A stretch of 64,000 nucleotides of DNA. Source: Chloroflexia bacterium SDU3-3. GTDB taxonomy: Bacteria > Chloroflexota > Chloroflexia > Chloroflexales > Roseiflexaceae. Under the pieces are notes generated by a model. The model searched no databases, was not told the origin of the DNA, and saw nothing but the letters and a program-made list of their open reading frames with translations. This document shows, piece after piece, positions 18,769-52,913 of this stretch. The DNA lies in the NCBI GenBank assembly GCA_009268125.1, contig WBOU01000005.1, forward strand, positions 1 through 64,000, written 5' to 3'. Numbering within the stretch: the first letter of the stretch is position 1; each line of letters begins with the position of its first letter. The translations under genes and the position numbers were made by a program.

Positions 18769-18793
18769 AGCCACGCACTAATTCAATAGGAAG

Positions 18794-18950
18794 ACTCATC
18801 ACGAGGGGCGGAGGGACTGGCCCGGTGAAGCCCGGCAACCCCCATGAGCACCTTGCCTTTAGCGGCCCACGGCGGCGGCAGAAGGCGGGAAGCAGGCATG
18901 GGAAGGTGCCAATTCCTGCAGGCGGGTGCTGCCGCCTGGTAGATGAGAGG
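18794..18950 (+). promoter_or_regulatory. SAM-I (S-box) riboswitch aptamer
   Basis: The S-box core is clear: GAGGGACTGGCCC and GAAGCCCGGCAACC at 18811-18840, with P1 formed by CTCATC (18795-18800) and GATGAG (18942-18947). The intervening arms P3 and P4 are GC-rich and pairable. In this class SAM binding stabilises P1 and lowers expression. The downstream genes mtnA, MetE-like and ahcY fit the known S-box regulon. Confidence 0.95.
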
Positions 18951-49509: not shown

Positions 49510-50080
49510 ACTATTTACTCCTCGCCATGGTATGGTATGACACGCATAGCCAGCGCTCTGTTGTACTAAACTCTCGACTTTGGAGGGATGGGGCACACTG
49601 CTGCAATCTTACGCATGTGCTCTACTCTATATTAACAGCAATTGTGACCAAACAGTTACGTATGTGTCTTTCTTGTATAAGACATAAGTCCCAGCCAACT
49701 ACAGGACTAACATAAAGATTCGCTGCCTGGACAATTATGAGCGACATTTTCACTCTTTTTAGCGGGCCTCTTTTCTCTTCTAGAAAATATCTATTGGCCT
49801 TCTATCGATCAGCAGGTGTAAATATTTTATTGTTGCCTTCATTGTGTCCGCGCAGCAGGAACCGAAAAGCGCCCTTTTTTTCAGGTTCATCATGTAACTG
49901 TTTTGTTATGCTGTTGATCACAAGATAACAGAGTACTCAAGCTAGCACCCTCGCCGATTCACCATGTTGACAGATAGCATAGGCACTGTAGCAAAATCTC
50001 TGGCCAGAATCAACCGCCTAAGATCGGGAATTAGTCCTGTTTTGCGCATGGGCAGGCCATGGCGGCGATCCGAGTGGATC
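49510..50080. other. Long, AT-rich intergenic region between divergent units
   Basis: About 570 bases, clearly lower in GC than the rest of the window from about 49600 to 50000. It contains weak inverted repeats (TGTTAT / ATAACA at 49911-49937) and no convincing gene; frames at 49476-49715 and 49737-49928 lack ribosome binding sites and resemble nothing known. It could hold a small RNA or regulator sites; nothing specific can be named. Confidence 0.5.
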
Positions 50081-50109
50081 TTGACACCCTGCGCGCTCCG
50101 TGCTAGGAT
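50081..50109 (+). promoter_or_regulatory. Promoter of tyrS
   Basis: TTGACA (50081-50086), 17 bases, TAGGAT (50104-50109) with TGC in front. Predicted start near 50116, giving a leader of about 170 bases. Confidence 0.85.
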
Positions 50110-50137
50110 ACGCGCAGTTTATCAAGGGAATCGCCTT

Positions 50138-50197
50138 ATGACAAATTCTTCACAGAGCACCTGCTGCGACTATTACCCCCGAGCATCTCAATCCTGA
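50138..50197 (+). CDS. Predicted leader peptide of tyrS with adjacent Tyr codons
   Basis: A 19-codon frame, MTNSSQSTCCDYYPRASQS, starting at ATG 50138 and ending at TGA 50195-50197. AAGGGA (50124-50129) lies 8 bases upstream. The codons TAT TAC (50171-50176) are adjacent and lie in the 5' strand of a stem that competes with an antiterminator. It sits between the promoter and an intrinsic terminator ahead of tyrosyl-tRNA synthetase. This is the architecture of amino-acid attenuation as known for trp, his and pheST (pheM) operons. Tyr is rare in so short a peptide, so two in a row before tyrS is unlikely to be chance. Confidence 0.72.
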   Translation: MTNSSQSTCCDYYPRASQS

Positions 50198-50268
50198 TCA
50201 TGCTCCACGGTTGTATGTCGCAATAAGATGGAAGAGACCACACGTGGACAACACCGTCCACGTTTTTT
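50165..50268 (+). promoter_or_regulatory. Transcription attenuator of tyrS: pause stem, antiterminator, terminator
   Basis: Segment 1:2 is a long nested stem: TGCGAC (50165-50170) with GTCGCA (50217-50222), ACC (50175-50177) with GGT (50209-50211), GAGCAT (50181-50186) with ATGCTC (50200-50205). The antiterminator 2:3 is TCCACG (50204-50209) with CGTGGA (50243-50248). The terminator 3:4 is CGTGGAC (50243-50249) with GTCCACG (50256-50262), followed by TTTTTT. A ribosome stalled on the Tyr codons would free segment 2 to pair with 3 and allow read-through; one reaching the stop codon would cover segment 2 and allow termination. Confidence 0.75.
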
Positions 50269-50285
50269 GTTGCACAGGGGGCAGT

Positions 50286-51473
50286 ATGGCCGATATATAC
50301 GATGAACTCCTCTCGCGTGGGGTGGCCGAGGTGCTGGTGGCGAGCGAGCTGCGCGCCAAGCTGCAGAGCGGCAAGAAGCTGCGGCTGAAGCAGGGCTTCG
50401 ACCCGACGAAGCCCGATATGCATATTGGCCACGCCGTAGGCCTGCGCAAGCTGCGCAAGTTCCAGGAGCTGGGCCACCAGGTGGTGCTGGTGGTGGGCGA
50501 CTGGACGGCCCAGATCGGCGATCCCTCGGGCCGCGATGAGACCCGCCCGCGCCTCACCGCCGAGGTGGTGCAGGAGAACGCCCGCACCTACATGAAGCAG
50601 TTTTTTAAGGTCGTGGATGAGTCGCAGACCGAGGTGCGCTGGCAGTCGGAGTGGTACGGCAAGTTCAAGCTGATCAACGCGCTCGATCTGGCCGGGCGCT
50701 TCACGCTGGCCCAGATGCTGGCCCACGAGACCTTCCGCAAGCGCTACGAGGAAGGCGCGCGCCTGAGCATCCTAGAGCTGATGTACCCCATGCTGCAGGG
50801 CTACGACTCGGTGGCGATCAACGCCGATGTCGAGTTCGGCGGCACCGACCAGAAGTTCAACAACCTGGCGGGCCGCGAGCTGCAGGGCCAGATGGGCCAG
50901 ACCCCGCAGGACATCCTGCTGGTGCCGCTCATCCCCGGCACCGACGGGCGCAAGATGGGCAAGACCTTCAACAACACCATCGATGTGCTGATGCCGCCCT
51001 TCGAGATGTATAGCAAGGTGCTCTCGATGACCGACGACGTGATGCCGCTGTACTACGAGGTGCTGACCGACGAGCCGCTGGCCGACATCGCCCAGATGAA
51101 GCAGGCCATGGCGGCGGGCACGGCCAACCCCATGGACTTCAAGATGAAGCTGGCGCGGCTGGTGGTCGACCAGTTCCACGCCATCGGCGAGGGCGCGCAG
51201 GCCGAGGCCGAGTGGATCAAGCGCTTCCGCGAGCGCGAGATGCCGACCGATATCCCGAGCTTTGCGATCAGTGCGCCGATCGCGATCATCGACCTGATGC
51301 TGGCGGCGAGCATGGCCGCGAGCAAAAGCGAGGCGCGGCGGCTGATCGACGGCGGCGGCGTGCGGCTGGGCGGCGAGAAGGTGGAGGGCTACGATGTGGC
51401 CGTTTCGCCCGACAAGGCCCCGGTGGTGCTGCAGGTGGGCCGCCGCAAGTTTGTGCAGATCGTGGCGCAGTAG
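50286..51473 (+). CDS. tyrS: Tyrosyl-tRNA synthetase
   Basis: Charges tRNA-Tyr. The 395-residue class I synthetase has HIGH (46-49), the YxxL..Q and GGTDQ tyrosine-pocket motifs, a KMSKS loop reading KMGKT (223-227), and a C-terminal S4 RNA-binding domain (about 335-395, ARRLIDGGGVRLGGEKV). Length and motifs fit the TyrS2/TyrZ-like form with full HIGH. ATG 50286 has AGGGGGC in front. Expression is probably set by the leader attenuator just upstream. Confidence 0.96.
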   Translation: MADIYDELLSRGVAEVLVASELRAKLQSGKKLRLKQGFDPTKPDMHIGHAVGLRKLRKFQELGHQVVLVVGDWTAQIGDPSGRDETRPRLTAEVVQENARTYMKQFFKVVDESQTEVRWQSEWYGKFKLINALDLAGRFTLAQMLAHETFRKRYEEGARLSILELMYPMLQGYDSVAINADVEFGGTDQKFNNLAGRELQGQMGQTPQDILLVPLIPGTDGRKMGKTFNNTIDVLMPPFEMYSKVLSMTDDVMPLYYEVLTDEPLADIAQMKQAMAAGTANPMDFKMKLARLVVDQFHAIGEGAQAEAEWIKRFREREMPTDIPSFAISAPIAIIDLMLAASMAASKSEARRLIDGGGVRLGGEKVEGYDVAVSPDKAPVVLQVGRRKFVQIVAQ

Positions 51474-51486
51474 CGCTGGTGGGCAG

Positions 51487-51526
51487 GGCCTGGGGCGGCA
51501 TCGCGATGCTGCCCCAGGCCTTTTTT
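51487..51526 (+). terminator. Intrinsic terminator after tyrS
   Basis: A 10-bp stem (51487-51496 with 51511-51520), extended by four to five inner pairs to a CGCG loop, then TTTTTT. It touches the stop codon of the convergent gene. Confidence 0.93.
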
Positions 51527-52913
51527 AGCGCCCGTAGGCGGCGGCCAGCTCGCGCAGCCGCACGTGCCGAACCCAGGCGTAGGTGTAGCACTTTTTGTCG
51601 AGGCAGTACGAGCGCAGCGTGCGCCCCTGGATGCCGGTGCCCACCTCTTTGCCCTTGCTCATATAGTCGATGCTAGCCTCCACCACCTCGTACTGCTCGG
51701 CGAGGGTGTACGAGCGCCCGCCGCGATCGACCCCGGCAAACGCGCCGACGTACAGGTTCACATGGCCCGCGACCCGGCCAGCCGTGCCCGAGGGGCCATA
51801 TAGCAGCACATCGCCCGGCAGCCAGTCGTTGGGCGCTGTCACCTCGATCAGCTTGGGATTGCGGTCGGGCACATAGTAGTCGGCCATGCTGGGGTTGGCG
51901 CTGCCGCCCCATTTGATATCGCAGCCCGCGCCTGCCAGCACCAGGCTGACCAGATCGGCGCAGACGATGTCTTTGTAGTGAAAGTCGTTGGGGTTGCCCA
52001 AGAAGCGGGCGCCGTAGCACATCTGCCGAAGGTTGGCCGGCAACAGGTCGAAGGTCTGGGCATCATCGCCCAGCGTGAAGAGGGCCAGGTCGATCACGCG
52101 GCGGGCCTTCTCGGGCAGCGAGCCATAGTCGGCGCGGGCGGTGCGCACCGTGCCGCTTGCGCCCCAGGCGGGCGCGAAGGTGGCTGGCTGGCTAGGCTGG
52201 GCCGCAAGCGGCATCAGCTGGATGTGCTGCGTAACCGCGCCGTTCAGCATCAGCGGCAGCACGTAGCGCACGTAGCCATCCACCTCCACCTGCAGCTCGC
52301 ACACGGCTGGCGATCCACCCAACGTAAGCTGGTAGCCGCCCTGCGCGTCGGTGGTGGCCTCGATTGTGGCGCGCGGCGCGGCATCGCTCTGCGGGATGAG
52401 GTAGGTGCGCTCGGGCCTGAACACGCGGCCATCGGCCACCAGCTGGGGATTGTAGAGCAGCGCCTGATCGCGAAACTGATCCCAGGTGATACCGGGCACC
52501 TTGCCCTGCACCTCTTTCACCCAGCAGTCCCACCGCGACCCCGAGAACCCCAGCAGCCGCCGCGTCCAGGTGAGCGGCACCACCGCCTGCGCCTCGGGGA
52601 TGAGGTAATCCTGCGCTGGCTTAAACACGCGACCATCGGCCACCAGCTGGGGGTTGTGCAGCAGCGCGCCGTCGCGAAACTGGTCCCAGGTGATACCGGG
52701 CACCTTGCCCTGCACCTCTTTCACCCAGCAGTCCCACCGCGACCCCGAGAACCCCAGCAGACGCCGCGTCCAGGTGATCTGCTGGCCCTGCGGCATTGCG
52801 GCAGCAGCCGCGCCCAGCGCCGCCGCCGGGCCAACCAGGCGCACCGAAACCCCGGCAATCGGCGCAAGGGTGGTGGCTCCGACAACCCGTCCAGACAACA
52901 TCATTGGTGGCAT
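51525..52913 (-). CDS. NlpC/P60-like protein with two near-identical LysM-like modules
   Basis: A 462-residue protein. Residues 6-30 look like the first strands of a carboxypeptidase-regulatory-like beta domain (SGRVVGATTLAPIAGVSVRLVG) and residues about 178-220 like its end (TTDAQGGYQLTL..VEVDGYVRYVLPL). Between them lie two near-identical 60-residue modules (47-106, 115-174), each with RWDCWVKEVQGK and a NPQLVADGRVF..YLIP end reminiscent of LysM. The C-terminal domain has Cys318 (VCADL) and His384 (GHVNLYVG) with DWLPGDVLLYG, the NlpC/P60 pattern of cell-wall hydrolases. No signal peptide is visible. AGAAGGAA precedes the ATG. Confidence 0.8.
   Translation of the reverse strand: MPPMMLSGRVVGATTLAPIAGVSVRLVGPAAALGAAAAAMPQGQQITWTRRLLGFSGSRWDCWVKEVQGKVPGITWDQFRDGALLHNPQLVADGRVFKPAQDYLIPEAQAVVPLTWTRRLLGFSGSRWDCWVKEVQGKVPGITWDQFRDQALLYNPQLVADGRVFRPERTYLIPQSDAAPRATIEATTDAQGGYQLTLGGSPAVCELQVEVDGYVRYVLPLMLNGAVTQHIQLMPLAAQPSQPATFAPAWGASGTVRTARADYGSLPEKARRVIDLALFTLGDDAQTFDLLPANLRQMCYGARFLGNPNDFHYKDIVCADLVSLVLAGAGCDIKWGGSANPSMADYYVPDRNPKLIEVTAPNDWLPGDVLLYGPSGTAGRVAGHVNLYVGAFAGVDRGGRSYTLAEQYEVVEASIDYMSKGKEVGTGIQGRTLRSYCLDKKCYTYAWVRHVRLRELAAAYGR
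52400..52775 (-). repeat. Intragenic tandem duplication, 204-bp period
   Basis: Two blocks of more than 100 bases, about 52467-52570 and 52671-52774, are identical at nearly every position and offset by exactly 204 bases (68 codons). The identity extends through synonymous sites, so the duplication is recent or kept uniform by conversion. Confidence 0.9.

What the first reader, a model, noticed from the sequence alone, without database searches (positions are those of the whole stretch)
50081..50290. tyrS appears to be controlled by a leader-peptide attenuator with tandem Tyr codons
Seen: TTGACA-17-TAGGAT promoter; AAGGGA and ATG 50138; a 19-codon frame with TAT TAC; a nested stem 50165-50222 containing those codons; TCCACG 50204-50209 able to pair with CGTGGA 50243-50248; terminator 50243-50262 plus six T just before tyrS. 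Known: trp, his and pheST operons use this logic (pheM is the leader of pheST), while tyrS in Gram-positives is commonly T-box controlled. Inference: tyrosine starvation or low charged tRNA-Tyr stalls the ribosome at the Tyr codons, favours the antiterminator and raises tyrS. I do not know of a described leader-peptide attenuator for tyrS in this group.
Basis: partly seen in the sequence, partly recalled or inferred. Interest (0 to 1): 0.82.

Follow-up and report, generated by a model that had tools for sequence, protein, structure and literature searches.

The report
Tyrosine-codon leader attenuator before tyrS
A Chloroflexales bacterium appears to switch on its tyrosine-tRNA charging enzyme by letting a ribosome stall on tyrosine codons in a tiny upstream gene, the classic trp-operon trick, in a genome that uses a different RNA switch (T-boxes) for several other charging enzymes; no earlier report of this for tyrS was found.

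Summary
A promoter, a 19-codon ORF with Tyr-Tyr (MTNSSQSTCCDYYPRASQS), a protector stem, an antiterminator element (TCCACG/CGTGGA) and a terminator with a T run lie just before tyrS. Comparison favours a functional attenuator. In 13 of 16 divergent Chloroflexales/Chloroflexia tyrS leaders with a terminator, a Tyr-containing short ORF ends 25-48 nt before it (38 of 310 residues are Tyr, against 4 and 8 in the other frames). Tyr codons, promoter, spacing and 2:3:4 complementarity are kept while most of the sequence is not. No other terminator in the window, or in 580 kb of synthetase loci (both strands), has a Tyr-Tyr leader. E. coli trpL has the same stop-to-terminator spacing (42 nt; window 44). 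The same genome has T-box-like leaders at pheS, glyS and ileS but none at tyrS, and a second aromatic leader (SFYFYYFYAS) before aroH-aroF with a 13-bp antiterminator. Leader-peptide attenuation of synthetase genes is known (pheST; trpS and leuS in Streptomyces), but I found no report for tyrS or for Chloroflexota. It is a new member of a known kind. The response to tyrosine is inferred, not measured.

The parts
50081..50109 (+). sigma-70-type promoter TTGACA-17-TAGGAT with TG before the -10
   Evidence: a matching TTGACA...TGcTAnnAT lies a short way upstream of most of the other leaders
50124..50129 (+). Shine-Dalgarno-like AAGGGA, 8 nt before the leader ATG
50138..50197 (+). leader peptide ORF, 19 codons, MTNSSQSTCCDYYPRASQS*
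   Evidence: Tyr-containing counterparts in 12 other convincing leaders
50171..50176 (+). regulatory tandem Tyr codons TAT TAC (codons 12-13)
   Evidence: Tyr is the most frequent residue over the 16 leaders, 38/310, against 4 and 8 in the other two frames
50165..50222 (+). protector (1:2) stem enclosing the Tyr codons and sequestering region 2; inner helix GAGCAT/ATGCTC
   Evidence: MFE fold; predicted pairing of the terminator arm to upstream sequence is 8.9 pairs when stalled and 0.8 in free RNA
50204..50209 (+). region 2, TCCACG: 5' half of the antiterminator, beginning 6 nt after the leader stop codon
   Evidence: kept in f1, f4 and f6 leaders as TCCAC(G) or GTTCCACG
50243..50248 (+). region 3, CGTGGA: pairs with region 2 (antiterminator) or region 4 (terminator)
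   Evidence: CGTGG is invariant in alignment A1
50242..50268 (+). intrinsic terminator ACGTGGAC-AACACC-GTCCACGT followed by a T run
   Evidence: -12.4 kcal/mol; compensatory changes in the family's terminator
50286..51473 (+). tyrS, tyrosine--tRNA ligase (regulated gene)
   Evidence: TIGR00234; single match in the genome

Best explanation
A ribosome-mediated transcription attenuator controls tyrS. RNA polymerase starts just downstream of 50109 and a ribosome translates the 19-codon leader. If charged tRNA-Tyr is plentiful, the ribosome passes the two Tyr codons and ends at 50195-50197. The protector stem re-forms, or the terminating ribosome covers region 2, so region 3 is free to pair with region 4, and transcription stops at the T run before tyrS. 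If charged tRNA-Tyr is scarce, the ribosome waits at 50171-50176 and covers the 5' arm of the protector stem. Region 2 (TCCACG) is then exposed and captures region 3 (CGTGGA) before region 4 is made, and polymerase reads through into tyrS. Shown: the elements, their geometry, their conservation and complementarity. Inferred: transcription from this promoter, translation of the leader, stalling, and induction of tyrS by tyrosine shortage.
For: All elements are present. Tyr-containing leaders precede tyrS in many relatives: HEYYCL, MIKKMYTQLYMSYYYPR, HFYCTY, SYYCTYASY, RTYYYRV, SYRHACYRP, MYAYAYQ, TYAYAY, TYGYYP, TYTYYS, YVYP, SYYPRT. Both TAT (27) and TAC (11) are used, so the amino acid rather than the nucleotide string is kept. 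With a stalled ribosome masked, pairing of the terminator arm to upstream sequence exceeds the mean of shuffled spacers in all 16 loci, Fisher P = 1.4e-5, and exceeds that in free RNA (P = 1.5e-5) and with the ribosome at the stop codon (P = 1.7e-3). L084 has unrelated letters (GCTGTCTGCCC/GGGTAGGCGGTGA) yet keeps the scheme. Specificity: 160 terminators in 580 kb (two strands) of synthetase loci, and only the four tyrS copies have a Tyr-Tyr leader. E. coli trpL, run through the same code, has a 42-nt stop-to-terminator spacing, window 44. A second aromatic leader precedes aroH-aroF in the same genome, with long conserved antiterminators.
Against: No expression data. In the window's own leader the antiterminator excess over shuffles is borderline (p = 0.055), though trpL itself gives p = 0.58 by the same test. 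With the ribosome modelled at the stop codon, the window's terminator arm still finds upstream partners (11.6 pairs). At equilibrium the terminator dominates in all but two leaders even when stalled, so the switch must be kinetic; trpL behaves the same way (0.94). L013 and L057 keep terminator and spacing without Tyr codons, and L012 has only one Tyr. The element is absent from Chloroflexus, Chloroploca, Herpetosiphon-like and other relatives. P values treat related loci as independent, and the start codon of a few leaders was chosen by hand.
Confidence: 0.86

Rival explanations
1. The hairpin is a constitutive or condition-independent terminator that only damps tyrS, and the short frame is incidental.
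For: Terminators persist without a leader in one genus (L028, L032, L044) and without Tyr codons in L013 and L057.
Against: Tyr is about 12% of leader residues, four-fold above the 3% used as background, and confined to the translated frame; spacing and antiterminator complementarity are kept; no such frame precedes the other terminators examined.
Confidence: 0.06
2. tyrS is controlled by a tRNA-sensing T-box or another riboswitch, and the short frame is a by-product.
For: T-box-like leaders occur at pheS, glyS, ileS and partly proS in the same genome; tyrS in Bacillus subtilis is T-box controlled (PMC2494555).
Against: At 49900-50400 the only Rfam match up to E = 5 is an irrelevant one at E = 4.5; no T-box reaches the gathering threshold anywhere in the window; the leader (about 150 nt from promoter to terminator) is shorter than the 219-position T-box model and lacks the GGGTGG-type T-box sequence seen at the other genes.
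Confidence: 0.03
3. The leader senses another cue that slows the ribosome (cysteine shortage through the tandem Cys codons, a translation inhibitor, or a stalling nascent peptide).
For: The window leader has Cys-Cys just before Asp-Tyr-Tyr; Cys is fairly frequent (12/310).
Against: Tandem Cys occurs in only two leaders, whereas Tyr is present in 14 of 16; peptide sequences are otherwise not conserved, which argues against a nascent-chain arrest motif; the downstream gene is tyrS, not a Cys or resistance gene.
Confidence: 0.05

Closest known systems
E. coli trp operon leader (trpL) ribosome-mediated attenuator
   Same: Short leader ORF with tandem cognate codons, 1:2 / 2:3 / 3:4 alternative pairings, intrinsic terminator 42 nt after the leader stop (44 nt here), terminator favoured at equilibrium.
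   Different: Tyr instead of Trp codons; regulates an aminoacyl-tRNA synthetase gene; unrelated sequence; different phylum.
pheST attenuator with leader peptide pheM (gammaproteobacteria)
   Same: Leader-peptide attenuation of an aminoacyl-tRNA synthetase gene by its own amino acid (established knowledge; mentioned in PMC1262725, and PMC11802643).
   Different: Phe, not Tyr; gammaproteobacteria; in the present genome pheS has a T-box-like leader instead.
Predicted trpS and leuS attenuators of Streptomyces (PMC1262725)
   Same: Comparative-genomics evidence for leader peptide, antiterminator and terminator before a synthetase gene outside Proteobacteria.
   Different: Trp and Leu codons; the passages read report no tyrS example.
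Corynebacterium aroF leader aroR (reviewed in PMC11802643)
   Same: Aromatic (Phe-Tyr-Phe) leader; resembles the second attenuator found here before aroH-aroF.
   Different: Reported to respond to Phe, not Tyr; controls DAHP synthase, not a synthetase gene.
tyrS T-box (Bacillus subtilis and other Firmicutes)
   Same: Same regulated gene and same presumed signal (uncharged tRNA-Tyr).
   Different: Senses tRNA directly without translation; no T-box match here.

Membership tests
ribosome-mediated (leader-peptide) transcription attenuators | short translatable ORF with start codon and ribosome-binding site shortly after the promoter | tested here: met
   AAGGGA, 8 nt, ATG 50138, 19 codons; translation itself not shown
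ribosome-mediated (leader-peptide) transcription attenuators | several codons for the amino acid handled by the downstream gene, conserved in relatives | tested here: met
   Tyr-Tyr here; 14 of 16 leaders contain Tyr, 11 with YY or YxY; exceptions L013, L057
ribosome-mediated (leader-peptide) transcription attenuators | intrinsic terminator between leader ORF and structural gene | tested here: met
   50242-50268; covarying stem in relatives
ribosome-mediated (leader-peptide) transcription attenuators | antiterminator that uses the terminator 5' arm and is released when the ribosome sits on the regulatory codons | tested here: met
   TCCACG/CGTGGA; Fisher P = 1.4e-5 over 16 loci; window alone p = 0.055
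ribosome-mediated (leader-peptide) transcription attenuators | protector stem formed when the ribosome is not stalled | tested here: met
   50165-50222; arm pairing 8.9 stalled, 0.8 free
ribosome-mediated (leader-peptide) transcription attenuators | terminating ribosome blocks the antiterminator | tested here: inconclusive
   trend over the set (P = 1.7e-3) but not in the window's own leader
ribosome-mediated (leader-peptide) transcription attenuators | read-through rises when charged cognate tRNA falls | not testable with these tools
   needs expression experiments
T-box leaders (RF00230) | T-box covariance-model match with T-box sequence | tested here: not met
   positive controls in the same genome at pheS, glyS, ileS
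Rfam amino-acid attenuator families (His, Leu, Thr, Trp leaders) | covariance-model match | tested here: not met
   it works like them but is not a recognised sequence relative

The most novel reading that the evidence does not exclude
Chloroflexales have a small regulon of ribosome-mediated aromatic-amino-acid attenuators (Tyr leader before tyrS; Phe/Tyr/Trp-rich leader before aroH-aroF) that operates side by side with T-boxes used for other synthetases, and the tyrS element is the first leader-peptide attenuator of a tyrosyl-tRNA synthetase gene.
Probability: 0.7. Interest if true: 0.58.

Novelty: new member of a known kind. Interest (0 to 1): 0.52.

Why it matters
In Firmicutes the charging state of tRNA-Tyr is read directly by a T-box; here the same signal appears to be read by a translating ribosome, in a genome that also uses T-box-like leaders. 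That makes Chloroflexales a place to study why one RNA sensing logic replaces another, and it extends classic attenuation to tyrS and to a phylum where I found no report of it. Related genomes with intact, Tyr-less, relic and absent leaders give a natural series for testing gain and loss. Whether Chloroflexota couple transcription and translation tightly, which this mechanism requires, becomes testable.

Tried and rejected
Rfam at gathering and permissive thresholds: no match at tyrS. Duplex energy between region 2 and the terminator arm alone was too blunt (mostly not significant) and was replaced by partition functions with a ribosome mask. Equilibrium terminator probability does not discriminate states, nor does it for E. 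coli trpL, so it was not used as evidence either way. Dehalococcoidia tyrS genes show no terminator or leader; from reading their upstream sequence they seem to follow another gene directly. The covariance model R1 found its training loci and many weak hits; most weak hits outside them are terminators without aromatic leaders, so R1 is not a reliable finder beyond the family. trpS and trpE upstream regions showed no convincing Trp leader in the genomes checked. No plasmid record matches the leader DNA. Ten literature searches found no report of a leader-peptide attenuator for tyrS or in Chloroflexota, but the library holds open-licence papers only.

Full report
What is there. The stretch 50081-50290 holds, in order, a consensus promoter (TTGACA-17-TAGGAT), AAGGGA, a 19-codon frame MTNSSQSTCCDYYPRASQS*, a nested stem containing the Tyr codons, TCCACG, a terminator hairpin with a T run, and the start of tyrS. 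tyrS is confirmed by NCBIfam TIGR00234 and has a single match in the genome. The long ORFs next upstream are on the other strand, so the terminator serves no evident upstream gene on this strand.

Is it more than chance? The 160-nt leader folds at -44.8 kcal/mol against -34.2 +/- 3.8 for shuffles (z -2.77, 2 of 200 as good). In the window there are 42 terminator-like hairpins on both strands, and only this one has an ATG frame with Tyr-Tyr ending 20-60 nt upstream. In 580 kb (both strands counted) of aminoacyl-tRNA synthetase loci from six genomes there are 160 terminators, and the only four Tyr-Tyr leaders are those of tyrS.

Relatives. tyrS was found in 141 of 158 genomes of the class and the upstream DNA of about 85 was read. 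Loci named place the relatives in Roseiflexaceae and Chloroflexaceae of the Chloroflexales (for example L091 = Roseiflexaceae bacterium ES-bin-105, in the window's own family; L093 Chloroflexaceae; L118 Oscillochloris sp.). Sixteen have a strong terminator near tyrS with a short frame ending 25-48 nt before it. Thirteen of these are convincing Tyr leaders, for example MIKKMYTQLYMSYYYPR, MIQQQSYYCTYASYHTG, MVNLPQPVRTYYYRV, MRAQKIGNTYGYYPAFRR, MRSRRMVSQSYYPRT. Over all 16, Tyr is the commonest residue (38 of 310, against 4 and 8 in the two other frames). TAT and TAC are both used. The exceptions are L013 and L057 (no Tyr) and L012 (one Tyr). Three genomes of one genus keep only a relic terminator (L028, L032, L044). 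Dehalococcoidia tyrS genes also lack it. The element therefore looks old within Chloroflexales with repeated loss, or spread by transfer; I did not build a tree.

Structure. In alignment A1 the terminator pairs carry compensatory changes and CGTGG of region 3 is invariant. Region 2 is TCCACG in the window and its nearest relatives, GTTCCACG (with CGTGGAAC) in families f4 and f6, TGCGTC (with GACGCA) in part of f2, and GCTGTCTGCCC (with GGGTAGGCGGTGA) in L084, so the complementarity persists while the letters change. A partition-function model with a ribosome masking up to 13 nt past the Tyr codon gave more pairing of the terminator arm to upstream sequence than shuffled spacers (Fisher P = 1.4e-5; window alone p = 0.055), more than in free RNA (Wilcoxon P = 1.5e-5) and more than with the ribosome at the stop codon (P = 1.7e-3). 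The last trend fails in the window's own leader (11.6 pairs at stop against 8.9 stalled). The stalled-versus-free comparison is partly built in, because the mask removes the competing arm. At equilibrium the terminator wins nearly everywhere. The E. coli trp leader, taken as a positive control through the same code, behaves likewise (0.94 when stalled), has the same stop-to-terminator spacing of 42 nt, and does not stand out from shuffles at all (p = 0.58). So the switch must be kinetic, as in trp, and the single-locus statistics are not a fair test of function.

Context in the genome. With permissive Rfam settings the same genome shows T-box leaders before pheS (89.6 bits), glyS (70.2), ileS (47.2), a partial one at proS (31.2) and a weak one at leuS (34.6). 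None reaches the strict 93-bit cut-off, but the T-box sequence GGTGGTACCACG or GGGTGGAACCGCG is plainly present in those I read. tyrS has no such match. The gene names of these loci come from the Pfam family searched and from reading the translations. The same genome also has a second leader, MNAARNNSFYFYYFYASLKRAWLLRVD, with a terminator before aroH (chorismate mutase, PF07736), with aroF (DAHP synthase, identified by reading the translation) following; counterparts occur in the probable Roseiflexus genome (MQSRSAYYFWFWYFASSPRDWLLRVG), several Chloroflexaceae and further Chloroflexota. Its antiterminator is about 13 bp in the window's genome and the set exceeds shuffles strongly (Fisher P = 4e-7 over eight loci). 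This independent example shows that ribosome-mediated aromatic attenuation is probably in use in this lineage.

Known work. Leader-peptide attenuators are established for pheST and predicted for trpS and leuS in Streptomyces (PMC1262725); an aromatic leader controls aroF in Corynebacterium (PMC11802643). T-boxes are known in Chloroflexi (PMC2494555). Ten searches of open-licence papers gave no leader-peptide attenuator for tyrS and none described for Chloroflexota; subscription papers were not searched.

Verdict. It works like a trp/pheST attenuator and meets the testable defining features, with one inconclusive. It is a new member of a known kind, with added interest from the side-by-side use of T-box-like leaders and from the second aromatic attenuator.

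Noticed in passing
L311 (G000:C7, around 348494), leader about 1258-1341 of the locus: A second aromatic leader peptide in the same genome, MNAARNNSFYFYYFYASLKRAWLLRVD (GTG start), with a terminator and a 13-bp antiterminator before aroH and aroF; conserved in Chloroflexales (L298, L307, L308, L319, L320, L321).
   Followed up: partly
L281, L287, L291, L294 (other Chloroflexota): Aromatic-rich leaders before aroF or aroH, e.g. MARLDSTCAYYFYRFFWYYAAV... (L281, aroF-like) and MKSSTRFFAYYYFSDSPPAAVSA (L291, aroH-like), suggesting attenuation of aromatic biosynthesis more widely in the phylum.
   Followed up: partly
L245, L195, L205, L186, L226 (G000): T-box leaders below Rfam's gathering score before pheS, glyS, ileS, proS (partial) and leuS (weak) in the window's genome; Rfam's strict cut-off misses Chloroflexales T-boxes.
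   Followed up: partly
L028, L032, L044 (G025, G027, G028): Relic terminators (AGCGTGGAC...GTCCACGCT with a poor T tract) directly after the promoter and without any leader frame, apparently a deleted attenuator.
   Followed up: no
L013 and L057: Two tyrS leaders keep terminator, spacing and a short frame but have no Tyr codons; either decayed or sensing something else.
   Followed up: no
window 18793-18949 (+): SAM riboswitch (RF00162, 79.6 bits).
   Followed up: no
window 51525-52913 (-): Gene convergent to tyrS with two near-identical tandem repeats of about 60 residues and no NCBIfam match; similar C-termini are encoded next to tyrS in G062 and G057, so the neighbourhood is conserved in the family.
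   Followed up: no
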